From contig JAKULF010000004.1 of NCBI GenBank assembly GCA_022661535.1, positions 3,968,001 through 4,032,000 on the forward strand: a DNA stretch of 64,000 bases. The letters run 5' to 3'. Below are positions 3 to 64,000 of this stretch, piece after piece. The notes under the pieces are model-generated. The model was not told the origin of the DNA, made no database searches, and worked only from the letters and a program-made list of their open reading frames with translations. This DNA comes from Eutypa lata (Eukaryota; Ascomycota; Sordariomycetes; Xylariales; Diatrypaceae). Each line of letters begins with the position of its first letter. The first letter of the stretch is position 1. Both the position numbers and the translations under genes were made by a program.

Positions 3-655
3 CAGGTCTATAGCTGCGAATACCAAGAGACAGCCGGCGACATCGCAACTTACTGCCTGAACCCAGACCTAGACGGAATTCATTTCTATCCCTCGCCTGA
101 CGACGCTCGCGGCGCGTGCTCGTGTAATTTGGGCAAGCTCTTGACATCCATATTTCAGGTTTCTGCTGAGACGGAATCGTGCGGTGCCAACGGCGAGGAG
201 ATAGTGAGCGGGTTGACGTCGAACGATGAAATCCAAACATTCGGCAAGGCTTGCATTTGCTGTTCTCAAAGTGCTACGCTGTCCGCATAAGTATTGCGAA
301 CTTACCTACTACGTACCTATGATGTAAAAACATAAGCTGGATGGAACGTCTGTCAACTAACGTCGAGTCATAGCCATAGCTTCTACGACGTGTGTCCTGA
401 TACGAATCCCTTGATACTATGATATTCAAAGGAGAAGAACGCGTGGTGACCGTTGTCAGTGCGGACGCGACGCCGCCGCCGACGTCGGCAGGGGAAGCGA
501 ATGAAGACGGAAATGATGATGAGAGCAGTGAGGATGATGCCGATAACAGTAGCGGTCAGGGATCTGAGGATAAACCGGATGCTGCTCCTGTCACGATGCC
601 TAAACCTATGGCCCTCGTCGGATTGGCTTTCTTAGCTGTTGTTATAATGCTTTAA
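3..655 (+). CDS. 3' part of a Cys-rich, probably secreted/GPI-type protein gene (5' end outside window)
   Basis: An open frame runs from base 3 to a stop at 288-290. It encodes about 90 residues with eight cysteines (patterns YC, CSC, CICC), typical of a disulfide-rich extracellular fungal domain, but I do not recognise the family. A second open frame ends at 655. It is acidic and Ser/Asp/Glu-rich and closes with a hydrophobic run (ALVGLAFLAVVIML), as in GPI-anchored proteins. The two frames can be joined in phase by an intron 271-431 (weak GTGCTA donor, AAAG acceptor), giving exons <3..270 and 432..655. The join is inference; the donor is poor. If it is wrong, these are two unrelated fragments. 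Confidence 0.4.
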
Positions 656-1737
656 TTATGTACAAGTAGCCCCGTTCGTGTATATATGGTGAACTCACAT
701 GACAATACATTACACCACATTGGCCCTTTCTCGGGTGGAAAGTCACCCATTGCAAAAATAGGAGATACATCAAATATTTGGTTTACAAATGGGACCCTCA
801 TTTTCGTTCAGTGCTGGCCAATTTAGTCCGGTCATTCATATAACCTAACCCCTTTTCGCCCCTTTTTAGAGGGTTGGGAACAAACAGCGAAATGTGTTCT
901 TTCTGTTTTGGCTAGAATACGAAATGAGAAGTTTAACTCGTGCACCAAATAATTACCATGTAAAACAAGGACCTTCTCGTCGAAGTGGCTGACAACTTAT
1001 TCTAGTTGACAAGGGGTGTAGGGCTTGGAACTAAGGTTTATGAAGCCCTTTTAATATTTCTTTTGTACACTTGTAAAGCGGATTCGACTGTATATATATA
1101 CATTATGGTACGTGTTTTTACCTGACCGTTGATAATATGTGTTGGTGCTATTAAGCATCTTTGCATTCTGGTATCGTCGAATGACCTTCTAGCAGTTGGC
1201 ATATTGGTTATCTTTGCAAATATCTTGCAGCTAACAACACTTGGTCCATTCCCTGTGTGACACTCTATTTATAATCATTCAATTAGTAAAACCAAATAAC
1301 CTTGCTGACTAAATATCATCCTAACTATTATACCTAATTTCAATGATGAGAACCCACGTATTACAGCGGCCCCTACAAAGTACTTTGCTTATAATCTATA
1401 TACTTTGCTGACGTCCATAAGTTAAAGATGCTAACAAGGTATATATATACCTAGGTAAGACAGGAATGTACATACCCTGGACATTGCCCGGAGTACGGAA
1501 GCGTTATAACCCCGAGATGTGCGGCTTACCCTGTCTTGAAGTTCATGATGCATGCGGCATGCCCCACTTCCTTATAAATACAGCAGCTTCGGCCGCCAAG
1601 CTCACCAGAGCCCATTCACGGCCTTGACTTCACTGTACTTTAGGCTTTAATTATTGAAAAGGTCGTAGTTAACTCATCAATTCACGTTCATACGCTTTCT
1701 CCCTCTTCGTTGCAATAGTTCAAGAACTTCGACCGCC
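656..1737. other. Intergenic, A+T-rich, no gene seen
   Basis: About 1.1 kb without an open frame of credible length or composition on either strand. It holds short TA-dinucleotide tracts (near 1090-1105 and 1440-1450). The last 200 bases are the presumed promoter and 5' leader of the downstream Rossmann-fold gene. Confidence 0.6.
1573..1580 (+). promoter_or_regulatory. TATA-box-like element (TATAAATA)
   Basis: A perfect TATAAATA lies about 165 bp upstream of the ATG at 1738. Position and strand fit a core promoter element for that gene. The assignment rests on sequence match and spacing only. Confidence 0.45.
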
Positions 1738-2686
1738 ATGAAACTCATCGTAACAGGCGCGACAGGCTACGTCGGCAAGGAGGTCATCCGGCAGAGCCTG
1801 GGCCGTAAGGAGATCACCTCGGTGATAGCCGTAGCCCGCAAGCCGGTCCCCTTACCCGACGGCCTAAGCAACAGCGCCGATGCCTCCAAGCTACACAGCG
1901 TAGGCATCAAGGACTACGAGCAATACCCGGATGACGTAAAGAAGGAGTTCTCTGGTGCCGGAGCGTGCATATGGTAGGTATTATCCGGCCTTCTCCTTTA
2001 TTTTTTATTTCTTTCCGGTTATTCAATTTGGCTGCGCACGCAAAGGACTGATAATGGCCCCTGTAGGACCGTTGGCATAAGCCCGGCCAAGGCATCGACG
2101 ATGGACTGGGACGAGCTGAAGCGCGTGAGTGAGACCTGCACAATCGCCGGCATGAAGGCCATGTACGAAGCGGGCCCGGCGAACCCCTTCCGCTTCCTGT
2201 ACGTCTGCGGCGAGACTGCCGAGCGCGACCAGACCGCCGCGCGTGATGCGACTAAAAAGCCAGGAATGAGGGAAAAGTACAACATGATGCGGGTCAGTCA
2301 ACACGCTTTTTTTCCCCCTGAATACTACTCTCGGGCTCCATCTATTTTCCTAGCACATATACGATCCCACGCTGCTAAGGAACGAAAAGATAACCATCCA
2401 CTGACGGCGCACCCATATGCAGGGCGAGTGTGAAAACCAAGTTCTGAAGTTTGCGGCTGAGCACGACGGCGTCGAGGTTGCCGCGGCTCGGCCAGCTATG
2501 ATCTACGCCCCGGGGGAATTCTTCAAGATCTACTTCTTGGCTCCAATAGCGAGGATGATCATAGGAGCTCCGGGCATATATACCACCGATTTGGCAAATG
2601 CGATGCTTGATCAGGTCATCAACGGGTTTGAGAAGGACGCTCTGCAGGCCAGAGATTTGGTGAGACTTTCTCAGCCCTCTGCGTAG
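1738..2686 (+). CDS. NAD(P)-binding Rossmann-fold protein (atypical SDR / NAD(P)H-binding family)
   Basis: Exons 1738..1973, 2067..2292 and 2423..2686 give 241 residues. The N-terminus is a beta strand followed by TGATGYVG (residues about 6-13), the glycine-rich dinucleotide motif of extended/atypical short-chain dehydrogenases. The second exon continues the fold and the third carries the ARPAMIYAPG segment common in this family. Intron 1 (93 bp, GTAGGT...CTGTAG) falls inside a Trp codon. Intron 2 (130 bp, GTCAGT...TGCAG) is phase 0. Both joins keep the frame and remove stops. No strict YxxxK pair is visible, so it is better called an NAD(P)H-binding protein than a specific dehydrogenase. The substrate is unknown. 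Confidence 0.8.
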
Positions 2687-3166
2687 GGTTGTATTATATT
2701 AGGAAGTGATGATATGGTCCAGTGGTCGTTTAGAAATATCTATGTAGTTTTATGGGGTTAGTATTTGATATCAGACCAAGAAATTGGGGTCTTGTTGGTG
2801 GTGCGGTAATATTAAACAATGCCACTCATTATCGTTCATTTTTGATGGGATCCGTTTAATAACAATAAGAAAGTATTGAGACAGGACAGGTTTACAGAAT
2901 TTTACCTGCTGGACTTAATTTGGAAATGATACGAGAGGGGATTCTAGATAGACATAGGTTTTCCGATAGAATTAAGACTCCATGGAGGGTCTCCATGCAA
3001 GTGATAATCCTTACTTTGAATCGCCGCCCGAATACCAAGCAGTTCAGCAAAGGGCTATGTTGATTTTATCCTCATGTTTTGAATACAGCGCTGTTTCGCT
3101 CAGAGTTACGTGCCTCGTGTGTTGACCTAATCATCGCTACACCCAAATTTGACCGTTCCCTTGTCC
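2687..3166. other. Intergenic between convergent genes
   Basis: About 480 bp separating the 3' ends of two convergent genes. I see no open frame or RNA-like structure in it. Confidence 0.6.
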
Positions 3167-4285
3167 TTATTCTTGCGTGGGTGCAAACAGCACGGTACTA
3201 CCCGCGCCAGCTTCCTTCGCTGCAGTTTCAATAGCATCATCCCAATCTTCAAGCTTGAAAACCTTCTTGACAATTAGACCAGCCTCAGGTCCCAGACGCA
3301 GGGCCCCAGACTCGATCATCTTGACGAGTTCCTGCGCTTGCTCCCTGGTGTACATGATCGTCCCTCTGACGGTTAAACCTCTCTGCATGACGATGTTGTA
3401 CGGAAAATTGAAATCCGCCAGGCCACCGCTGAAACTAATTCTCCCGCCTACGCGAACTGACAAGATGCCTGCCCTGACGTGAGACGGGCTCTTTACCTTC
3501 AGGGGAGTCAAGTCGTAGAACACGTCAATGGGGCCTAGCTTCGACAACGCCGCAAGGTCGGTCTCTTCACTGCTGCTGATGGTAACTGTGTCCACACGGT
3601 TAGGAGCCAGGGACTTCAGCCCAGCCAAGATAGACGTGTTTCGACCCATGGCTATCACGCGCGCCCCCATAGCCAACGCAACATGCACCGCTGCACCGCC
3701 GAAGTTGCCAGTTGCAGGGGTGATCAGAACTATTTCCCCAGCATTCAGGTTAACGTCTCTTAATCCACCGTAAGGGATGGCGAGCTGGGCGAAGAAGCCA
3801 AGATCCTGCAATGTAACGTCCTGTCGTCGAAGCGCCTCTTCGTTGAAGCGGTGCACATTCTCCAACGGCACCTTCACCAATTCGCCCCAGGTACCGTGGT
3901 GCCAGTGATCATACGCCGAGGTTGTTTGCGGCGCCGCGGCTCCTAACGTCAACATGTAGCTTTTGCCGGGGTCGTCGCGGATCCGTATCCAGGGCTCCGT
4001 CGTCACGAGATCCCCGACGCTCAGACCCGCGGAATCGGGCCCCACGGCGACAACGCGGCCGATGGCGCCGGTGCCCCCTACCACGGGGAACGGAATGCCG
4101 TACTGTCGCGGATTCCCATTTGTGTAGAGCTCGTTCGAATAGCTGGGAATCCAGCAGTAAAGTGGTTTCACGAAAGCGGATCCTGGTTCGAGCTTCGGAG
4201 TGGGAATGTCCGTGACTATGGCGGGATCCGATGCTGATGGAAACAGAAGCCCCTTGTACGTCGCTGGAAGCTGGTGAGAAGACAT
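3167..4285 (-). CDS. Zinc-independent medium-chain (MDR) alcohol/quinone dehydrogenase-like protein
   Basis: An intronless frame of 372 residues with an ATG at 4285. The C-terminal half has the cofactor-binding motif ATGNFGGAAVHVALAMGA (about residues 191-208), as in MDR-superfamily Rossmann domains. The N-terminal half is a GroES-like catalytic domain. The catalytic-zinc GHE motif is replaced by GGTGAIG (about 70-76), and the structural-zinc four-Cys cluster is absent. It should therefore act as a zinc-independent NADPH oxidoreductase. No signal peptide is seen, so it is probably cytosolic. The substrate cannot be told from the sequence. Confidence 0.85.
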   Translation of the reverse strand: MSSHQLPATYKGLLFPSASDPAIVTDIPTPKLEPGSAFVKPLYCWIPSYSNELYTNGNPRQYGIPFPVVGGTGAIGRVVAVGPDSAGLSVGDLVTTEPWIRIRDDPGKSYMLTLGAAAPQTTSAYDHWHHGTWGELVKVPLENVHRFNEEALRRQDVTLQDLGFFAQLAIPYGGLRDVNLNAGEIVLITPATGNFGGAAVHVALAMGARVIAMGRNTSILAGLKSLAPNRVDTVTISSSEETDLAALSKLGPIDVFYDLTPLKVKSPSHVRAGILSVRVGGRISFSGGLADFNFPYNIVMQRGLTVRGTIMYTREQAQELVKMIESGALRLGPEAGLIVKKVFKLEDWDDAIETAAKEAGAGSTVLFAPTQE

Positions 4286-4913
4286 GGCAACCTCTTGAAC
4301 CTATGTAAACCAGTCTTAAAGTGAAGAAGAAAAAATGATAATATGTTGAATCGAGGTGATGATTACAGCGACTGCTATGTGGGAATTGCAACTCAACCTA
4401 TATGTAATACTGACCGGATAACTTAGATAATATCTCCCTTAACGTGGGTATTTCGTTTTGTAATCCAGAGAACATAAAATGGCTAGTGGTGGGCTATGGA
4501 TGCCGTTATGCCCGATAGATATTAAAGTCACCGGATAAATCCGAATACTTGATTAAGTTCTTATTATTATATGTATATATTATATATTAAAGGCTTTTAA
4601 TTAAATCCTTTAATTTAACGTCGTTATAACTTAACGATTTTATTTTTATCGGGTTTTTATAAAGGTTTAAAGATTAAAGATTCTTCGATATATATACATT
4701 TATTTAAATATATATATTTTTTATTTTAAATATTAAAAAGAAAAATTAAAATAAATATAATATTTATATAAATATAAATACGTTAATTAAATTTAATATA
4801 AATAATTATATATATTAAATTATTTTTAAAAAAGTTAAAAAAGAAATATTTTATATTTTATTTTATTAAATATTAATAATTAAAATAATATAAAATAAAA
4901 ATAAAAATAAAAA

Positions 4914-5040
4914 TATTATATTTATAATAAATTAATAAAGTTATAATTTAATTTATTTCGTTTATTTAAATAAAGTTTTTAATTTAAAAAGTAAATATTA
5001 AAATTAAAGCTTTTTAATAATTTTTAATTTATATTTATAT
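4914..5040 (+). repeat. Direct repeat copy A within the A+T block
   Basis: Copy A begins TATTATATTTATAATAAA. It includes a long identical core through TTTCGTTTATTTAAATAAAG and ends TTAAAGCTTTTTAATAAT...TTTATATTTATAT. Copy B, at 6113-6240, matches over about 127 bp with only small differences, in the same orientation and about 1.2 kb away. Such similarity is above chance even in A+T DNA because the rare CG and AGCT sites align. Confidence 0.75.
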
Positions 5041-5759
5041 TTTAATATAATAATAATTCTTTAATAATATATTTAAAACGATAATTATAAATATATTTTA
5101 AAATAAATTATTTATAATTAAAATAATAAAGTTATAATTAAAATAATTATAAAAAACAATTTAATTATAATTAATAAAACGAAATTTTATTATTATAATA
5201 ATATTAAAATAATTATTAATTATTAAAAAAATTAATAATAATAAAAAACGAAATTAAAACGAAAATAATTATATATTTATATTAAAATAATTTTACTTTA
5301 AATAACTTTAAAAAATATTAAATTTTAAAACGATAATAATAATAAACTTATTAAAGTTAACGAATTTAAAATAATAAATATTATTATTAATAATATTAAA
5401 AGTAATTTTTTAATTATTATTATAAATATTAATAAAAAAACGAAAATAAATATAATTTTAAAACAATTATACGAAAATTATAATATTAAATAAAAGTTAA
5501 ATTTATAAGTATAATTATAATATATAAAATAAAATAAAAAATAAAAAATATTAAATTATAATATTAAATTTAAATATTTAATTTAATATATTATTAAAAT
5601 TAAAATATTAATTAATATAAAATAATAATTTACGATATTTATTAATTTAATTAAAAGTATTAACGTTATAATTTAATAATTACGTATTAAAAAAAATTTT
5701 AATAAATATTAAATATAACGATAAATTAAATATATAATAATTTTATATTAAAAAACTTT

Positions 5760-5790
<31 letters not shown>

Positions 5791-6112
5791 TTTATAAAAT
5801 TAAAAATAACGAAAAGTTTAATTAAAATAAAAACAATTAATTATATTATTTTAAATATAATAAATATAATTATTTAAAAAGATTTATTTATAAAAAGAAA
5901 TTAAAATTAAATTAATAATTAATTTATATTAATATATAACTTTAAATATAATTAAAAAAACGTATAAAGAATAAAACGAAATATTTATTAAAAAAATAAA
6001 AGATTAAAAAATATTAACGAAAAAAAAAAGTTTTAAAATAATAAAAAATAAAAATAAAAATAAATATATTATTTTTTTTAAAAATATTAAAAGAAATAAC
6101 TTTTTAAAGCTT

Positions 6113-6240
6113 TATTATATTTATAATAAAGTAATTAAATTATAATTTAATTTATTTCGTTTATTTAAATAAAGTTTTAAATTTAAATAATAATTATAAA
6201 AATTAAAGCTTTTTAATAATATTTAATTTATATTTATAAT
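6113..6240 (+). repeat. Direct repeat copy B within the A+T block
   Basis: Second copy of the repeat at 4914-5040, same orientation. The spacing of about 1.2 kb would suit terminal repeats of a small element or two tandem copies of one repeat. Both copies are too mutated to tell which. Confidence 0.75.
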
Positions 6241-6792
6241 TTATTAATAATAATAATTAAATATTAAAAAATAAAAATATTTTAAAACATTATATATAAT
6301 TTTTAAAATATATAATTATATATATATAATTTAAATTTATTATTAAATTAATATAAACGTTTTTAAATAATAAAATATATTTTATTTTTCGAAAATTATT
6401 TAATATTAATATTTATTTATATATTATAATAAAGTTATTAATTTTTTAAAAAAAATATTAATATTTTTAATATATATTATTATTTTATAATTTAAAAATA
6501 ATGTAAATAATATAAAAAAGTTTATTAATAAAATATTTATTTTAAATTAAATTAAAAAAATATTTATATTATATAATTTATAATTTATTAATAATAAATT
6601 ATTACATTATATTTTTTATTTATAATAAATATTACAATTTATAAAGGGGTTAATTTTCGTGCATTATATAGCTCGTAAATACGAATTCATAAATACGTTG
6701 TACATCTCGTGTAATGACTTGCTAACCTAACCATAATTAATATACATAGATGCATATAACAATAGATGTCATTATTACACGGGACAGTGGCT

Positions 6793-8080
6793 TCATACTA
6801 ACCCATCCTTGGCAGTTTCATCCATTGCCGCGTCAAGTAACTTCTCGCCTCCCAATGAGGGAGACCACGTGTTGGTCCAGCATTCGATTAGAAACGAACC
6901 AAGGAGTGTAGACAAAATCGGAACATGTCCGCAGAGCATGCTGCCTTTTGCCCCTCTGTAGGTCTTGTGGCGTTTCACAATGACTTCAGCATAGAGAACG
7001 GACGGCATATGGCTGTGTAACAAGTGTGAAGCAGCAACCAAAAGGAGCAATAAATCTAGATGATCACAAAGGTTGGATGCGTCGATCACACCATCAACAC
7101 CTATTGTAACGATGCCTGATACATAGACGGGTCCATCCAGGACGGGTGATCAAGATGGTACTGATCTCCGTACCAATTGGCTGTGTTTGCTTTCGTAATG
7201 CACTTACGTTATATTTTATGTGCAATGGATTCAGCATCTCGAATAAAGCAACGTACCCTGATGTCCGCGATGTGCTTTCTGTATGATGCTATTCATTCAC
7301 ACAGCTCTATGCGAGCGATTGCCACAATTCTTCCTAGCTGAGGAAGCCCCTTCAACTTGTTGAATAACGGGTAATTCGGGCAAAGAGGGACGTAGGCTGT
7401 GACAAGATGAAAATCAGGTAAAGGGCCGGTGCCATAGTGGATAGTAACACCATCTTCCATGGTCAGACAGAGAGAATTTGGATGCTTTGCGCTTGCTCTG
7501 ATATTCGCATTTAACTCAGTACTCCTATACTTCCAATAGTGATCATGAAAAATGTCAATATCTCCTAATACCCCAGTTTGAGCTGGAATAGCCGATCGAA
7601 CGCTAGTGAAAGTGAAGGTGATATTGCCAGCCTCCCTACAGGCTGTCGTACTCTTTGCCTTTTTAAGGTTACCTTAAAAGCGATGGTTGAGATGCGATAT
7701 TCCTGCCCTTTTTTGCTTGGTACTATAAATTCCCACATCTTCCTGACATCGGCCAGCCTCGCAGAGTCAGAGAACCTGATCTTGTATCCGTACTTTCTCC
7801 ACTGCTAGGTATCCTTAGTGGTAGAGAGTTCGCATAGCTTCTTGTTCTGCCACGGAAGAAGGTCCAAAGCCTTTTGTCGGCGTACATGTGGTGGTAGATG
7901 CTCCACAGTGAGTTGTCGTGCTAACCATTGTCATCGCCGATGATAAGTGATAGAACTAGCATGTTACCAGCTTGAAGGGGAGATATTAATTCCTTACATC
8001 ACCAGAGTACAGCTCGTCTATGCTAGCCTTCTGAACATCCCAGCAGGTTATGTCATCCTCCAACCTCGTCACACATTTTT
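6793..8080 (-). pseudogene. Decayed DUF4470-type (fungal MYND-finger-associated) gene
   Basis: Read on the minus strand, successive pieces in different frames match the conserved order of fungal DUF4470/MYND-type proteins. They are: ITCWDVQKASI (about 8050); NMLVLSLIIGDDNG and LWSIYHHMYADK (about 7950-7870); YGYKIRFSDSARLADVRKMW (about 7790-7730); SVRSAIP then DHYWKYRSTELNANI (about 7600-7500); IHYGTGPLPDFHLVTAYVPL (about 7450-7390); ADIRVRCFIRDAESIAHKI (about 7265-7210); NWYGDQYHLD; and finally DASNLCDHLDLLLLLVAASH to a stop at 6793. Between pieces there are frameshifts, one in an A-run near 7670. An in-frame TGA sits after ARIELCE where I recall the family having Trp. Family recognition is from memory of conserved blocks. 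The gene looks inactivated. Confidence 0.7.
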
Positions 8081-9102
8081 GTTGTAACAATAACACGATA
8101 TGTGACTGAGTTACATGATTCGGTTAACATATCCATCGCAACTTGTTACCAGGATCACGCGGCTTTCTTAATCTCAAGTAGTATCACACCCTATTGTTAT
8201 GCATGTAGAGTCGGATCATGCCAGCGCACATCAAATTGAAATTTGTACAACGGTAGTAGAAACTTACTCAAGAGCGGCAATGTATGAGTGCGTAAAGGCG
8301 CCGGTAGGATAACAGAACGATGTATCATCATATTTGTACATCTTTGTACATCTTTGAAATGAGTAATGGTAAGCGAATCACAGTCTATAGTGTTCTAGGC
8401 AAATAGAAGCAGTATAGTTATGAAGGGCTCTGTAGCACCAGTGAACGGGATGTCGTAGCACTACCACCGTGAGTTGGCCATCGCCGCCACCCACATCTAG
8501 GCCTTCTCCGTGCATTAATTCCCTTGACATAATTGATGATCCCATAGGCCGGCTTCGTAACCAATAAGGAAATTCAAATTCGGAAGATATAGACGAGCTG
8601 GCCGGTGACTTACCTTTGACACATACCACTTTCAGTTGTTGATCGTAGATATTGTACGAAGAATACCTTCGCAACTCCGTACTTTAACTTCAACAATTAA
8701 CGTGTGTGAGCAGTGTGTGCTACTCGTGATATATTATGTTTTCCTGTAACATGCTCCTGTGGCATAAGACTCAGAGCCATCAAGGGAACCGTGATGAATG
8801 CTGTATTCTATGAACCATACATAGACGTTGTGTTCATCGAAACCTGGCATCACCTCGGAGATAAGTAGAAAGAGGGACATGCTTCAAAGTCGTCGCTGGG
8901 AAAGGCTTGGTCCAAAAAGAAATATATATATATACTAAGTCTACTCCTCTGAACAGCGAGTGGCCAACCCAACCAAGTTCCCCATCATCACAGTGGTATT
9001 TGCAATTTCCCAAGTCAGTTCCCATCATGTCTCATTAGGGTTGCCGCCCACCTTGTTACTAACCTTTTTTCAGCTTACAGCCTTAACCATCAGCACGTAA
9101 TA
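8081..9102. other. Intergenic / gene-relic region
   Basis: No confident gene. A 98-residue minus-strand frame (8378-8674) exists. It could be an upstream remnant of the decayed DUF4470 gene, but I recognise no motif in it. A TCTTTGTACA direct duplication lies near 8335-8355, and a TA microsatellite (8919-8935) lies about 170 bp upstream of the lectin/aerolysin-like gene. Confidence 0.5.
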
Positions 9103-57075: not shown

Positions 57076-58419
57076 TTAGACCTGGTTACTAGACTTAACT
57101 ACATCAGGCCTAAGTTCAAGCTCATAGTGGTCTCCTCCGCCCCTTTCGCTCGGCACTGTAGGTCTACTCCTTTCTCCGTGTCCTAGATGCACCTCGCTAT
57201 CAGGCGTTTTGTAAAAACCAGGATTCCTAGATTCTTTCGACTTGCTGTTCCTGGGAAGACTTATGAGTGAGACGAGACTCTCGGTTGGCAAGATATGGGT
57301 GAGGATGGATCGGAGCGTTGGTCCACAGGCAGCAATAATACCGACTTGGACCTCTACGAGATTCCAGATCGAGATGCCCGTAAGGATTGCTTTCTCATAA
57401 TTAGAGGTGCGAAAAGGGGGGGAGGGGGGGGGGGAGGAGGGTTCAAAATGATTTACTAATTGCGTCTTCAGTATAACGACTTAAAGTTGCCATAATGTAA
57501 ATATATGCTTTAGCAATGGACGCGCCGACGGAACTATAGTAGATGAGCTTCTGTAAAATCATGTGGAAATAGTCAGACACATACAGCGCACCAACCATGA
57601 ATGTCAATGTTGTTAGGATCTTTCTATGAGTGCTCATTTGTAGTTTCATGACCACCGGAATCGGAATCATAAGCGTGATGAGGTCGGTGGCGATATCACT
57701 TCCGACCATCGCCCACCCACTCGGAATCGCACTTCCACAATGGTGCAGGTACTCGTCTGGCTCACCAAACAACGCCTTGAGATGAGATCCGCATTCCAAA
57801 AGGCCGGCGAGGACAAACGAGGTCGCCCATATTACAATGATGACCATCCAGACGATTAGGAAGCGACGGAACATAACTTGGGCGAAAAGCTTCCAGTACA
57901 GGAAACAGACGGAGAGTTTGATGAATCCAAGAGTCGCAATGCCTATGAGGAGGTAGCCTAGTTCAATCTTGAACCTAATAGTTAGAAGACCAGAGATACA
58001 AGAGTGGCGCAAGATCGAGGTGATATCTTACATGTTTGGCTTTATTCAACCGCCCTGTAACTGCTGTAGGATCTTCAAGCGTACCCCCAAGAGGATGTCC
58101 TAGGGCCTCAACCGCGACCCCTAGTTTGCGTCAGCATTGCTACCTATTCTAAAACTTCCAAAGCTGTACATGCCAAGATCGGACTCCCATTCGGGTACAT
58201 TATGTGACGATGAAGGATGATCTTACCATAAATCTCCAGAACAGTCAGGCCTGTTCCAAAAATCCAAGCAATGAGAATCAGCCAATCACTTAGTAGAATG
58301 CTCTGTCTTTTCCATCGTCTAGAATAAAATCTCAGACCAACGCCTAGCGTAGTAAGAATTTCCAGAATCACTGAGGCAACGATCAAGCCCGCGGGGTTAT
58401 TATATCGGAGCCCGCCCAT
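57076..58419 (-). CDS. Seven-transmembrane rhodopsin-domain (PTH11-type) membrane protein
   Basis: Four minus-strand exons, 58419..58227, 58120..58032, 57967..57457 and 57389..57076, give 368 residues (introns 106, 64 and 67 bp). Hydrophobic helices alternate with the family's hallmark pieces: RFYSRRWKRQSILLSDWLIL, LGFIKLSVCFLYWKLF, GWAMVGSDIATDLITLMIPI and, after the last intron, WNLVEVQVGIIAACGPTLR. The C-terminal tail is soluble, Ser/Arg-rich and likely cytoplasmic. Relatives include fungal PTH11-like receptors, but many are orphan plasma-membrane proteins. The last intron carries a G-run (C-run on the coding strand, about 57416-57434). Confidence 0.85.
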
Positions 58420-59774
58420 GATGAATGAACGATAATATTGGACGAGATATAAATAGTGATAACTTGGGGGATGATGTCAATACAATAAAGAGATCGTGCT
58501 ACATAGAGTTGGGTAGAATCTATGCTTATATACCAATAAGGTATAACCACTCAGTAGTTCTCAACTACCTTGGCGGAACATTTCGAGGTAATAAAAATAC
58601 TGTTTGGGGCCATGGAAAAGATCAAGTTGCAACTTCAAACTCCCACAATAAACTCATACCCCTTCCCATCAAACTAGGGTAGGCGCCTAATCGAGGTTAT
58701 ACTATATTTGTAGAAGTAGGCATATTAAGATAGCGGATACAACCCTAGAGCCAACTTCATGCCATAGGTGTCTCGAATAACAGGTCGTGACCTATGGCAA
58801 ATGGAAAAACTGTGACGTAACTAATAAAACCCAATAATATTGTCATCAAACCAACACATGCAACAATTCTGGTTGAAGTTGGCTTCCGGCAGGGAGCCTT
58901 GTAGTGGGGCTCTAGAGTAGGTGCTACTCTAGGCAGGCTGAAAGCTCGCTTAGTTAGTAACGGGAAGCCTCACGCAAATAGGAACCGACTATAAGGCTCG
59001 GGGAGAGCTTGCATGCTATCTGCCCTTGCTAGTGTTGGATAACCAACTGTATTACGCACGTCCTAATGTATCATTATTGGGACTATACTACGCATGTTGG
59101 GACACTGTCACATCAAAACATAGAGCTACCCCGCTCTTGCCCCCCTTTTATGGATAGAGTATAATGGGGGCGGCGCCTAACATGCATATTTGATGTGCAA
59201 TGTTGGCTGGCTGGCTTCCTTGCTATAGGCGCTGAGCCACAGGGTCACATTTCCGCTAGGCTGCTGCTTAATAGTCTAATGATAGTCTAAGGGTGTTGCT
59301 ATATTCTGAACCTCATGCTCTGATAGTACAATAAGAACACTTGCAGTTCGTAACGAGAAGTGGAGTCTGTGCCCCCTTTATGCATGGGGGTTATATCAAA
59401 CCAACCTCATTAAAGGCTACGTGGACGGGCGTCATTCCTATTGTGAAAGTGCTCAAGCGATTTGATTTACGATTTTACGTTCCTAACGCCGCAAGCGAAC
59501 GCGGATTGAACATAGAAGGAACATCCCGGTCAGTCACTAGCAGACTGGCACAGGTTGCAATACTCCAATAGTAACTTTAATCTATCGGCGATCATTATCC
59601 TAATTCATGTGAAGTACGAAGTAAGGATAGTGTCACACATCGTGATCTTTTTTTTTTTTTTTTTTGTTTTTTGTAATAAGTCGTGCAATGAGCATTTCTA
59701 GAGCATGTGAATTAGAGAGATCGGAGCATTATCTAAACAAGTAAATATTGAACTAATGACAACTCGCCCCCGTG
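58420..59774. other. Intergenic left flank of the putative RiPP locus
   Basis: No supported gene. Contains short related pieces GCCCCCTTTTATG (near 59140) and GCCCCCTTTATGCATGGGGG (near 59370), and a poly-T run at 59648-59664. A plus-strand frame at 59341-59571 has no motif. Confidence 0.5.
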
Positions 59775-60698
59775 TTACAATGATGGCTTAGGCTCTGTAT
59801 TGTTCTCATACCAGCTCTCTGGGGGTCCAACCAAATCATCTAACCTTGCTGCCCTCCCTTTCATCCATTCATGGAGTGAGCTCCAGTCCACACATGCATG
59901 TGGCTGGGGGACCTTCACAGTTGGCTTAAACCTACTGTGGGGGGTCCATTTGAGAGTATAGACGTTTATATCAGCATTGCACAGAACCTCCTGACGAAGC
60001 GATTCTAAACAGTGGTCGACGTGGAAGTATAATTCTTCCCAGTCTTGTTCTTCATGGTTGTAATAATAGTCAGGATGGATGTACTGTTTGAGACGTTTCT
60101 GGCTTGTATCTTAGTAGCAAACCCAATATAAATGGCTGAAGATATAAGAAAGGTATGTATAGTGTAGCCGGTTTCGAATCAGACTTACCAAGCAATGTAA
60201 CGAATGTGATATTCCTAGTCCACCAGCGTAATCGCCACCCTCGAGTCTTACAGACGTTGCATTATTAGACTGAAAGAGTTCATCTTCAGAGAACCGGATC
60301 AACGTCCCCTCTAGCAAATCATGCCAGGCCTGGTCTAATTCTGGTCGTGGCTCTCCCATAAACTTCGGAGTATCTGGATCAGCTGTGAGATATCTGTTGA
60401 CATACTTCAACGGTGCAGGCGCTGCTTCTATAATTAGTCCTATCTTGTGAATTTTGCAAGTTTACGTACAATATGGCGACATCGCACCAGGTGTGGAAAA
60501 TGGGCATGATACTGTGCTTAGTATGTATACGACCCCTCCAATTAGGAGTAAAATTATTCCCGATGAGGAAATGAGAAGCATGTAGAATCTTCGACGCCAG
60601 ATATGTTCTATCTGTGAAGTCGTTGACTCTATATCTACACTCTCGTCATGTGAACTGACGGGAACATATTGAAGTGTTGCGTCTGCGAAGAGTGTCAT
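59775..60698 (-). CDS. UstYa/DUF3328-family protein (RiPP macrocyclisation-type oxidase)
   Basis: Three minus-strand exons, 60698..60470, 60424..60189 and 60098..59775, give 262 residues (introns 45 and 90 bp). One transmembrane helix near residues 39-61 follows a short basic cytosolic tail. The DUF3328 core has KYVNRYL, AWHDLLEGTLIRFSEDEL and GGLGISHSLHC. Both diagnostic HxxHC motifs are intact: HSLHC (150-154), just before a splice junction, and HVDHC (181-185). UstYa-type proteins act in fungal dikaritin (ustiloxin, phomopsin, asperipin) and cyclochlorotine pathways, oxidising and cyclising peptides in the secretory pathway. It is divergent from a small Kex2-type secreted peptide gene 0.8 kb away. 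Confidence 0.9.
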
Positions 60699-61479
60699 GA
60701 TAGCGGTATAGCTAAAAGATCAAGAGGGCAGTGTGAGTCTTGGAATGTAGGCCAACTTTGAGTAAGATAAGAGGTAGGTAAGCAGAGATAGTGAAGGCTT
60801 CTACTACCGGGGGTGGTGTTGTAGAAGCAATCGAGTGATAATTGCAAGCTCTAAGAAGACTTGATTATACAACTGGGTGGTGTTGATAATGGGCTGGCAT
60901 GTTCGAATTGCAGTTTTCCCCGTTTGAGGTTTTGAATTACAGTCTATTTGTATCACATTAAAATATACATAATTAACTTTTATCCTCATTCGGAGCCACG
61001 CCCGGTCAACGTTGCGCTGTTTGTCGCCATCGTTAACTAACAGCATAATAAGTTCAGGTTACATGGGTATGGAGGCGGTGCCTGGATTTAGAATCAAGAT
61101 AGCGTAGTACCCACCACAATGCTACCATCATTAGGCTAACAGCACAACCGAAATAGTGGTTAGATCTTCATTTGTTCACATGTCTAACATCCACCTGGAT
61201 GGTAGGGCGCTTAGTTGCTAACATGCAAGTGCATATCTTGCCCTGAATTGTGGCACAGATTTTAAGGGGAAACCATGGCGGAGCAGAATCAAGGTGAATG
61301 TTTGCATTCCTATGTACATAGGTGATGTTGGTGCTGGATGTGATAATAACAAGTAAGTTTGCTTCTGCCGTAGATATCAAGAGGCGGCTTCCCACTCACC
61401 ATCACTGGTTTCGATCGATATTGTTCCTTTGTATCACTCATAAACCAAACGCTCGCATCAACGTAGCATAATACACAAA
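60699..61479. other. Divergent promoter region of the UstYa-like and peptide-precursor genes
   Basis: 0.78 kb between the two start codons. Short minus-strand frames (60804-61046, 61168-61395) have no motif. No clear TATA box found. Confidence 0.5.
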
Positions 61480-61739
61480 ATGAAGATCATATCACTTTTT
61501 GCTCTTCTCTGCGCAATGGCTGTGCCAGCAAGCGCTATACCTGTTACGGGTAAGTCAATCTCTAACTCAACTCTTTAACCTTCTACCTCTAACTTGCTAA
61601 AGGGCGAGAAACGACTGAAGTCCATCCATACAAACGAGACGGCTCAACAGAATTCGATACGGACCTCTGTATTTTAAAGAGAACCATGGTTGAGAGAGGC
61701 GACATACTTGGAACAGGAATTGATAACTGTGATATGTAG
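61480..61739 (+). CDS. Short secreted peptide precursor with Kex2 sites (candidate RiPP precursor)
   Basis: Exons 61480..61549 and 61603..61739 give 68 residues. The 53 bp intron has a GTAAGT donor and GCTAAAG acceptor region. The signal peptide is strong (MKIISLFALLCAMAVPASA). Then come a 14-residue leader piece ending at a KR (VHPYKR), a 13-residue acidic segment DGSTEFDTDLCIL, a second KR, and a C-terminal piece with GTGIDNCDM. KR sites are Kex2 cleavage sites. A signal peptide plus KR-bounded acidic cores is the plan of fungal UstA-type (dikaritin) precursors, although those usually carry several near-identical cores and here there is one. The neighbouring UstYa-like gene supports the idea. 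Alternatives are a Kex2-processed effector or a pheromone-like peptide. Confidence 0.65.
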
Positions 61740-62189
61740 ACGGCAGTGGGTGGGTGCCGGTCAATGTTGCAGGAGTTCAATCACACGGCGAAGGGGCAGG
61801 GATAGTGAAGGGAAGTGGGGAAAGGTTGTATTCATTGGGGGCTGAAGTCTTCCGATACTACTATAATATGCAAGTTGGTGAATTTTGTTTTGCACATGCA
61901 TGTGTACTAATTGCGTGTGATTGCCGTAGTGTTCTTGCAATCGTGGTTCTAATTAGAGAATGTTATGCTATACCTGCAATGATATTGATTGACCTCCCAA
62001 CAACCTCACTCCTTAGAACTTCTCATTTTATTCCCAACCAAACCGCTCAAAGCCACAGTTTCGTACATGACGCTTGAGAGACCTTATAACTCCTATACAC
62101 TATACTCGTTACCTTCACCATTTATCCTTCATTATTTTTCCAAAGCCTAGATAAGGCATACAACATATCTACATCGTACTTCTGAGAAG

Positions 62190-64000
62190 ATGATTTCAAC
62201 ATTGGTGCGGACAGCTCTGTTTGGGCTCGGGGTGAGCTACGCTGTCGCTGCGGAGCCGATCGTGAAGCTTGAAAAGACAAAAACGACGTATCGGGGTCTA
62301 GTCGAAAAGTCTGTAGAGCATTTCCAAAATATCAGGTATGCTCACGATACATCTGGTGAACGACGCTTTGCTCCTCCTGAGCTATACATACCAGCAGAAG
62401 GGGACATTGATGCTACAGCGCCTGGCTCAGCATGCCCCCAGTCTAAACCTGGCATGCCGCCATTCTTCGTTGAAACCTCAGACATTAGCGAAGACTGCCT
62501 CAACCTCCGTATTTCGAGACCTGCTGGAACTACTGCGCAGGATAAGCTTCCCGTAGTGGTCTGGCTTCACGGTGGTGGGGTTGTCAAAGGTTCAGCGTAT
62601 GATCCTCATTTCGACCCTGACAACCTCATCACGTTGTCGACATCACTCGGGAAGGGTATCATCTATGTTTCATTGAATTATCGCATCACTATATTCGGTT
62701 TTGCTCGCCTTCCTACATTGAAAGACCAGAAGTCATTGAATATAGGAATGAGAGATCAAAGGGCAGGATTCGAATGGATCAAAGATAATATAGAAGCATT
62801 TGGTGGTGACCCGGAAAGAATAACCGCCTTCGGACTAAGTGCCGGCGGCACATTCATTTCACTCCATCCCCTGGCTTATGGAGGAAAAAGGGGTGTACCG
62901 TTCTCCCAGATCTGGACTATGTCTGGACCGCCTGGCACAGCCCTTAATATCACATCAGAAATCACTGAGACACATACTCTTGCGGTCGCAGAAAATTTGG
63001 GATGTGCATCTGATGATGACAAAGAGGTCTTGAAATGCTTGAGGGGGGTACCGATGGAGGAGTTAACAGAAGCGGCAATGGAGTACTCAAGGGCCAATCA
63101 TCCGCCGGCGGGCCTTTTTACTTTCATCCCATCAGTCGACGATGATTTTATACCAGATAGACATTCGGTATTGTACAAGGCCGGAGATTTTGTCAAGGGT
63201 ATGTCCTTCTCCCCTCTCGCATTTTATGTCCCCTTGTTCTTGTCATAGCTAACTAGTGACCATAGGAATTCCAATGGTCTTCGGCTGGACACAGGATGAT
63301 GGCGCGATGAACGCCGGACCAGCCCCCCTCTTCGAGGATGAAGAAGCAATGAAAATTCCAATCAAGAGCTTTGCGCATGCTCTCACGGACGAGGACTACG
63401 AAAATCTCTTTTCTCTATACTCTCCCCTTGATTTCGCAGATGATGTTAAAAATTACAACGCCCGAAAAGAAGAACCCGATCCTGTTGCCCCTGTACACTA
63501 CTTTCGGGTCTCTCGAATTCTGAGGGACATGATGTTTACTTGTCCCTCCATTGATTTCGGATACGAGATGTCTAGGCAGTCCAAAGCGCTCGACCCGACC
63601 TTTTCTGGTGTTCGCCTCTACGACTTGAATCAGAGCATGTTAACGCCCATGTTTAAAGGTGCCGGGATGCCATATATGGGCGGTAAGCTTTTACGTGTTA
63701 ATTTTCTCCCTTTTGTGACGAGTTGCAGTACTTCAAGCTACTCAAAGGGACATGCTCAAGAAGCAGGGACTATAGGATGACTCCCACGTCTCCATAGAAC
63801 ACCCGCAAAGAAGCAATTGCTGACTTTAGATATTTCAGTGTGCCACGGTAGCGATACAAATTATATATTTAATGGTTTGTTTCCGGAAGGTGAGGTATCG
63901 GAAACAGATCAGACGCTATCTGAATCAATGGCCACATCTTTCATCAATTTCGCCTACACCGGCAGTCCCATCAATACCGATGATGAAGACTTCAAATCCT
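62190..64000 (+). CDS. Secreted type-B carboxylesterase (3' end beyond window)
   Basis: Exons 62190..63198, 63266..63682 and 63839..>64000, with introns of 67 and 156 bp. It has a signal peptide (about residues 1-20). The carboxylesterase-B features are YRGLVEKSVEHFQNIRYA, the SEDCLNLRI motif, oxyanion LHGGG, and nucleophile FGLSAGG with Ser217. In this elbow GES is replaced by GLS, a variation known in some fungal esterases. The third exon resumes with CHGSDTNYIFNG, which carries the catalytic His. Intron 2 is long and contains an extra partly coding-looking piece, so its borders are the weakest call. It is on the same strand as the peptide precursor, 450 bp downstream, and may act on its product. 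Confidence 0.85.

What the first reader, a model, noticed from the sequence alone, without database searches (positions are those of the whole stretch)
59775..64000. Candidate fungal RiPP (dikaritin-like) locus: UstYa-type protein, Kex2-type peptide precursor and carboxylesterase
Three adjacent genes fit the pattern of UstA/UstY biosynthesis: a DUF3328 protein with both HxxHC motifs, a 68-residue precursor with signal peptide and two KR sites, and a secreted esterase. The precursor differs from known ones because it has a single 13-residue core (DGSTEFDTDLCIL) and a second Cys-containing tail rather than repeated cores. The product could be a new cyclic peptide class. The precursor is missed by simple ORF calling because it is split by an intron.
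Basis: partly seen in the sequence, partly recalled or inferred. Interest (0 to 1): 0.88.

Follow-up and report, generated by a model that had tools for sequence, protein, structure and literature searches.

The report
Two-peptide fungal RiPP precursor with UstYa
A fungal gene pair encodes a tiny secreted precursor that holds one nearly unchanging 13-residue peptide and a second cysteine peptide, beside a copper-type oxidase that probably modifies it; it looks like an overlooked, non-repetitive relative of known fungal ribosomal peptide pathways.

Summary
UstYa (59775-60698, -), an intron-split 68-aa precursor (61480-61739, +) and a secreted-type carboxylesterase (62190 on, ending 308 bases past the window) are all there. 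The precursor is not chance: nine database proteins share it, all ten sequences carry an identical DGSTEFDTDLC while signal/pro regions are unrelated (45 pairs: core 93%, signal+pro 12% identity). The 'tail' GDILGTGIDNCDM is conserved too, so this is a two-peptide precursor with two invariant cysteines, not single-core. The UstYa link recurs: in both named species with the precursor (Biscogniauxia mediterranea, Xylaria sp. CBS 124048) a UstYa of the same clade sits on a contig of identical length. In this genome a diverged precursor lies head-to-head with the nearest UstYa paralog (C10), and a second, apparently decayed precursor+esterase pair exists (C7). The precursor fails the repeat criterion for KEPs/classical dikaritins: it works like a dikaritin pathway but is not filed as one. 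Peptide cleavage, UstYa's reaction and the esterase's role are inferred. The nearly frozen core fits a fixed target better than a diversifying toxin. New variant of a known kind.

The parts
59775..60698 (-). UstYa/DUF3328 gene, exons 60698-60470, 60421-60189, 60098-59775, 261 aa, HSLHC and HVDHC
60699..61479 (.). 781-base intergenic region between the divergent UstYa and precursor start codons
61480..61739 (+). precursor gene, exons 61480-61549 and 61603-61739, 68 aa
   Evidence: relatives
61480..61536 (+). predicted signal peptide MKIISLFALLCAMAVPASA
   Evidence: hydropathy only; translation; cleavage point by eye
61550..61602 (+). intron, phase 1, GTAAGT...AAAG
61632..61637 (+). KR before core 1
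61638..61676 (+). core 1 DGSTEFDTDLCIL
61677..61682 (+). KR after core 1
61683..61697 (+). variable linker TMVER
61698..61736 (+). second conserved peptide GDILGTGIDNCDM
62190..64000 (+). type-B carboxylesterase, exons 62190-63198, 63266-63682, 63839 to C5:4032308 (308 bases past the window)

Best explanation
A small RiPP pathway. The precursor enters the secretory pathway by its signal peptide. Kex2-type cleavage after KR/KK releases DGSTEFDTDLC(I/L)(L/V) and the C-terminal peptide, typically (G)D(I/V)xGxGIDNCDx, basic residues being trimmed. The neighbouring membrane-anchored dicopper UstYa oxidase, facing the lumen, modifies one or both peptides, most likely at Cys or Phe of core 1 because neither peptide has Tyr. 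The carboxylesterase acts late and only in some lineages. The near-invariance of core 1 suggests a conserved receptor or target. Shown here: gene structures, family conservation, repeated linkage of precursor with UstYa and of precursor with esterase, intact copper motif. Inferred: secretion, cleavage, modification, function.
For: Nine relatives. Core 1 93%, core 2 63%, linker 42%, signal+pro 12% mean pairwise identity over 45 pairs. Precursor P0004 (F4809DRAFT_636473) and the top UstYa hit P0010 (F4809DRAFT_636470, 68%) of B. mediterranea both lie on a contig of 8,724 bp; precursor P0008 and UstYa P0028 (57%, the only hit listed from that strain) of Xylaria sp. CBS 124048 both lie on one of 468,309 bp. 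Precursor+esterase duplicated at C7. A diverged precursor head-to-head with the nearest UstYa paralog at C10. A structural scan recovered both genes and gave 0 candidates in 117 kb of control. The HxxHC pair forms a binuclear copper site in the homologue CctR (PMC12435403, abstract and passages). The AF2 model of database orthologue P0010 puts both motifs on helices after one long N-terminal helix (mean pLDDT 71).
Against: No expression or mass data. DUF3328 enzymes also serve non-ribosomal and polyketide pathways (PMC12048977 section 22), and a polyketide synthase cluster starts next door. No UstYa match in the 40 kb held around the C7 pair. The window's second cut site reads VER, not dibasic; P0001 and P0009 read AR/TR before core 1. 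The C10 UstYa frame reads VTDHC where the second motif should start with His (by eye). The kexin gene was not located (all empty). Same-contig linkage rests on equal contig lengths and locus tags, not on fetched DNA. P0002 and P0003 are nearly the same sequence. P0001 was part of the profile that scored it. Signal peptides judged by hydropathy only.
Confidence: 0.7

Rival explanations
1. Plain secreted signalling or effector peptides: the precursor is cut by Kex2-type protease and its two cysteines form a disulfide, and UstYa is a neighbour that acts on something else.
For: Two invariant cysteines in 10 of 10 sequences; a nearly frozen core; spacers such as KREEAKR resemble pheromone-type processing sites (recalled, and PMC6339444 passages).
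Against: UstYa linkage in 2 of 2 named species and at a second locus of this genome; Umemura reports that nearly all KEPs annotated as mating factors or pheromones lack DUF3328 neighbours (PMC7329392 abstract).
Confidence: 0.2
2. UstYa and the esterase belong to the polyketide synthase cluster that starts right of the window, and the small gene is a bystander.
For: PKS frames begin within about 0.2 kb of the esterase stop; DUF3328 occurs in polyketide clusters (PMC12048977 section 22).
Against: The C7 precursor+esterase pair has no PKS frame that I recognised by eye in 40 kb; the B. mediterranea UstYa and precursor share an 8.7-kb contig, too short for a PKS of this size as well.
Confidence: 0.06
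3. The precursor is a chance spliced reading frame.
For: Short, split by an intron with an AAG acceptor.
Against: Nine relatives with an identical 11-residue stretch.
Confidence: 0.01

Closest known systems
Dikaritins (ustiloxin, asperipin-2a, phomopsin, victorin)
   Same: Signal peptide, Kex2-type sites, adjacent UstYa/DUF3328 with the HxxHC pair; one UstYa gene as in asperipin-2a (PMC7329392 section 7; PMC12048977 passages)
   Different: No repeated cores, no Tyr in either peptide, two different Cys peptides; no tyrosinase or methyltransferase among the window frames typed
Kex2-processed repeat proteins (KEPs)
   Same: Secreted-type precursor cut at dibasic sites
   Different: The survey definition needs 3 or more tandem repeats of 8 aa or more (PMC7329392 section 13); here there are two dissimilar peptides
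Ascomycete alpha-type pheromone precursors
   Same: Kex2-type cut, short peptides, Glu-Ala-like spacers in several members
   Different: DUF3328 neighbour; no pheromone-like sequence (partly recalled, partly PMC6339444 passages)
DUF3328 clan R2 clusters of lichens
   Same: A single UstY gene and no repeated-core precursor (PMC12048977 passages and section 22)
   Different: There no precursor was identified; here one is

Membership tests
Dikaritin RiPP | DUF3328/UstYa gene with the precursor | tested here: met
Dikaritin RiPP | Both HxxHC motifs in UstYa | tested here: met
   HSLHC and HVDHC; second motif's H, H, C invariant in 39 rows, first motif's in 90% or more
Dikaritin RiPP | ER signal peptide on the precursor | tested here: met
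   By hydropathy and inspection only; no SignalP available
Dikaritin RiPP | Kex2 sites flanking the core | tested here: met
   KR on both sides of core 1; the second peptide's N-side reads VER in the window; cleavage itself not tested
Dikaritin RiPP | Repeated core sequences in the precursor | tested here: not met
   Two dissimilar 13-mers, same residue at 2 of 13 positions (by eye); four other UstYa loci of this genome do hold repeats
Dikaritin RiPP | Tyrosinase, methyltransferase, peptidase or transporter in the cluster | tested here: inconclusive
   Only selected frames were typed; none found among those of the window
Dikaritin RiPP | Side-chain cyclised product | not testable with these tools
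   Needs mass spectrometry
KEP | At least 3 tandem repeats of at least 8 aa between Kex2 sites | tested here: not met
   Sequence against the definition
DUF3328 copper enzyme | N-terminal membrane helix and HxxHC(x)nHxxHC on helices | tested here: met
   Motifs in the window protein; layout from the AF2 model of orthologue P0010, not of the window protein
DUF3328 copper enzyme | Binds two coppers | not testable with these tools
   Known for CctR (PMC12435403 passages)

The most novel reading that the evidence does not exclude
The mature product is a two-chain peptide: the two 13-mers, each with Cys at position 11 in the window protein, are released from one precursor and stay joined through their cysteines (disulfide, or a thioether/oxidised link set by UstYa), forming a conserved fungal signal used across many Sordariomycetes rather than a toxin. 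The C10 copy has lost both cysteines together, as a joined pair would predict (one case). That would be a new architecture for fungal RiPPs.
Probability: 0.2. Interest if true: 0.8.

Novelty: new variant of a known kind. Interest (0 to 1): 0.6.

Why it matters
Published fungal RiPP surveys that I saw look for repeated cores near UstYa; this family has none, is split by an intron, and its two named relatives are annotated only as 'hypothetical protein'. A 2025 lichen survey left UstY clusters without a repeated precursor unexplained and suggested a single-core case (PMC12048977 section 22). The conserved DGSTEFDTDLC stretch gives a direct handle for finding such precursors beside one supported UstYa clade whose named members come from many Sordariomycetes and a few Dothideomycetes (names, classes recalled). 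A nearly frozen core also makes testable whether UstYa peptides can be signals rather than toxins.

Tried and rejected
Rejected: single-core reading (core 2 is conserved). Rejected: classical KEP/dikaritin membership (repeat criterion not met). Led nowhere: kexin gene search (empty; the patterns and the yeast query were recalled, introns may interrupt them, and one search's answer itself says an empty result shows nothing). No UstYa relative in the PDB by sequence (best E 0.094) or by fold of the P0010 model (none at E 0.001 or better). The first structural scan found nothing, not even the known gene, because its acceptor and branch-point rules excluded it; the relaxed rules were set after that and after L021 was known, so it is a consistency check, not an independent test. 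It returned 3 candidates in 165.5 kb of UstYa loci (L013, L017, L021), the window gene, and 0 in 117 kb of control. Literature: of four core strings searched, one search found one paper (on avian leukosis virus, unrelated, for one string). Searches listed no paper that I recognised as describing this family; several lists were capped (one search showed 40 of 213) and most subscription journals are not held. Papers seen: PMC7329392 outline with abstract, sections 7 and 13, passages; PMC12048977 passages and section 22; PMC10512285, PMC12186524, PMC7099791, PMC6339444, PMC9233826, PMC8403587, PMC9632046 passages; PMC12435403 passages including its abstract; the others in listings only.

Full report
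The three genes are present as described. The spliced precursor is MKIISLFALLCAMAVPASAIPVTGRETTEVHPYKRDGSTEFDTDLCILKRTMVERGDILGTGIDNCDM. The UstYa gene needed an intron choice: many splice variants keep the frame open, and I took the one with a consensus-like donor, branch point and CAG acceptor, which fits the PYSPAPxxYVN consensus of an alignment with 38 database relatives. The esterase is complete at 631 aa once the next stretch of the contig is added.

The precursor belongs to a real family. A single-sequence search gave one relative, P0001. The genome itself gave a second copy on C7. A profile of these three gave P0001 again and eight more database proteins (9 of 23 candidates at E 10 or better). 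In all ten sequences (window plus nine; P0002 and P0003 are nearly the same) DGSTEFDTDLC is identical and is followed by [IL][LV]. Over 45 pairs mean identity is 0.93 in core 1, 0.63 in core 2, 0.42 in the linker and 0.12 in signal+pro. Most of the short relatives lack a clear signal peptide, as expected if exon 2 was called without splicing (inference). Between the window and C7 copies, over EFDTDLCILKR, 2 codons are the same, 6 differ silently and 3 change the residue.

Both segments are conserved and each holds one Cys in 10 of 10. KR or KK follows core 1 in ten of ten. KR precedes core 1 in eight (AR in P0001, TR in P0009). The linker varies in length and ends in KR before core 2 in nine of ten; the window has ER there (by eye). 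Two peptides therefore fit better than one core plus a tail, the window's own second site being a weak point.

UstYa linkage. The window UstYa's best database hit, of 76 at E 1e-10 or better among 917 candidates, is B. mediterranea F4809DRAFT_636470 on a contig of 8,724 bp; the precursor of that species is F4809DRAFT_636473 on a contig of the same length. For Xylaria sp. CBS 124048, UstYa GGR50DRAFT_50158 and precursor GGR50DRAFT_50046 are both on a contig of 468,309 bp. That is 2 of 2 named species; the distance within the Xylaria contig is unknown, and the contigs could not be read. In a tree of 44 rows these UstYa proteins fall in one 36-row clade (98/98) with Sordaria, Chaetomium, Podospora, Apiospora, Stachybotrys and Periconia, apart from a cyclochlorotine-type protein and others. 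Several forks inside the clade are open, so orthology is not resolved.

Own genome. UstYa gives 37 exon matches, merged to 33 pieces at 19 loci. Four of the loci fetched hold ordinary repeat precursors (L013, L019, L026, L027). A diverged precursor, MKNILIISLFASLAAAAPLTTDQANGLTPVIRRDGTTEFDPDFGFKGKREWNGDFDPLVGKS, lies at L021 2879-2623 (-), divergent from the UstYa that ranked nearest to the window's (45% over 71 aa). Its short match alone is weak (E 0.15); place, signal exon and a phase-1 intron in the same position support it, and another acceptor gives a 71-aa form. It lacks both cysteines. Its UstYa neighbour seems to lack the first His of the second motif (by eye). The C7 copy sits directly upstream of an esterase 69% identical to the window's; the next match by score is 34% identical, although short stretches elsewhere reach 48%. 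In C7 the precursor frame is broken between the KR site and the Cys, and the esterase frame changes once, so the pair is decayed or misassembled. No UstYa match lies in the 40 kb held around it.

Mechanism. DUF3328 proteins are binuclear copper, oxygen-dependent, membrane-bound enzymes facing the organelle lumen (PMC12435403 passages). With a signal peptide and dibasic sites this places secretion, cleavage and oxidation in one compartment. What is oxidised is unknown: neither peptide has Tyr, so the Tyr ethers of ustiloxin and asperipin are excluded; Cys, Phe or aliphatic C-H sites remain. The esterase's role is open.

Comparison. Surveys define KEPs by three or more repeats (PMC7329392 section 13; PMC6339444 passages) and describe dikaritin precursors by repeated cores (PMC12048977; PMC10512285 passages; PMC9632046 passages). 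This precursor fails that feature. A Hypoxylaceae survey noted that finding fungal RiPP pathways depends on similarity to known precursors (PMC8403587 passages). Hence: works like a dikaritin pathway, not filed as a dikaritin; a new variant of a known kind.

Noticed in passing
L009 about 498-8698 (-) and L010 1-8794, i.e. C5:4032498 onward: Directly right of the esterase: non-reducing PKS frames with SAT, KS, AT, ACP, methyltransferase and reductase-type Pfam domains (product-template and thioester-reductase NCBIfam matches below their cut-offs), FAD oxidase, secretory lipase, trichothecene-type acyltransferase and, by eye, a transporter frame; resembles an azaphilone-type cluster (the azaphilone likeness is recalled).
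   Followed up: partly
window 57443-58476 (-); C7:2285395 (L035); C14:2719503; C5:5583337; L021 8018-8413: Fung_rhodopsin membrane-protein genes lie within 3.5 kb of UstYa at 4 of 19 loci (counted by eye from the capped list), plus L021. If 150 genes were spread evenly 0.49 would be expected, P=0.0016; that null ignores gene-cluster effects.
   Followed up: partly
L013 4975-5646, L019 2268-2717, L026 3090-3440, L027 3046-3405: Four repeat-type Kex2 precursor frames beside UstYa genes in the same genome; the L013 one lies in a cluster with five UstYa pieces.
   Followed up: no
L017 7328 (+): Another candidate small gene with a signal-type exon and phase-1 intron, at a locus with three UstYa pieces.
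   Followed up: no
window 4001-8000: AT-rich stretch (18% and 31% GC in two 2-kb blocks) in a window otherwise mostly 43-59% GC; possibly a mutated repeat.
   Followed up: no
L033 1035-1814 (+): RNase H-like retroelement frame just left of the C7 pair, judged by eye.
   Followed up: no
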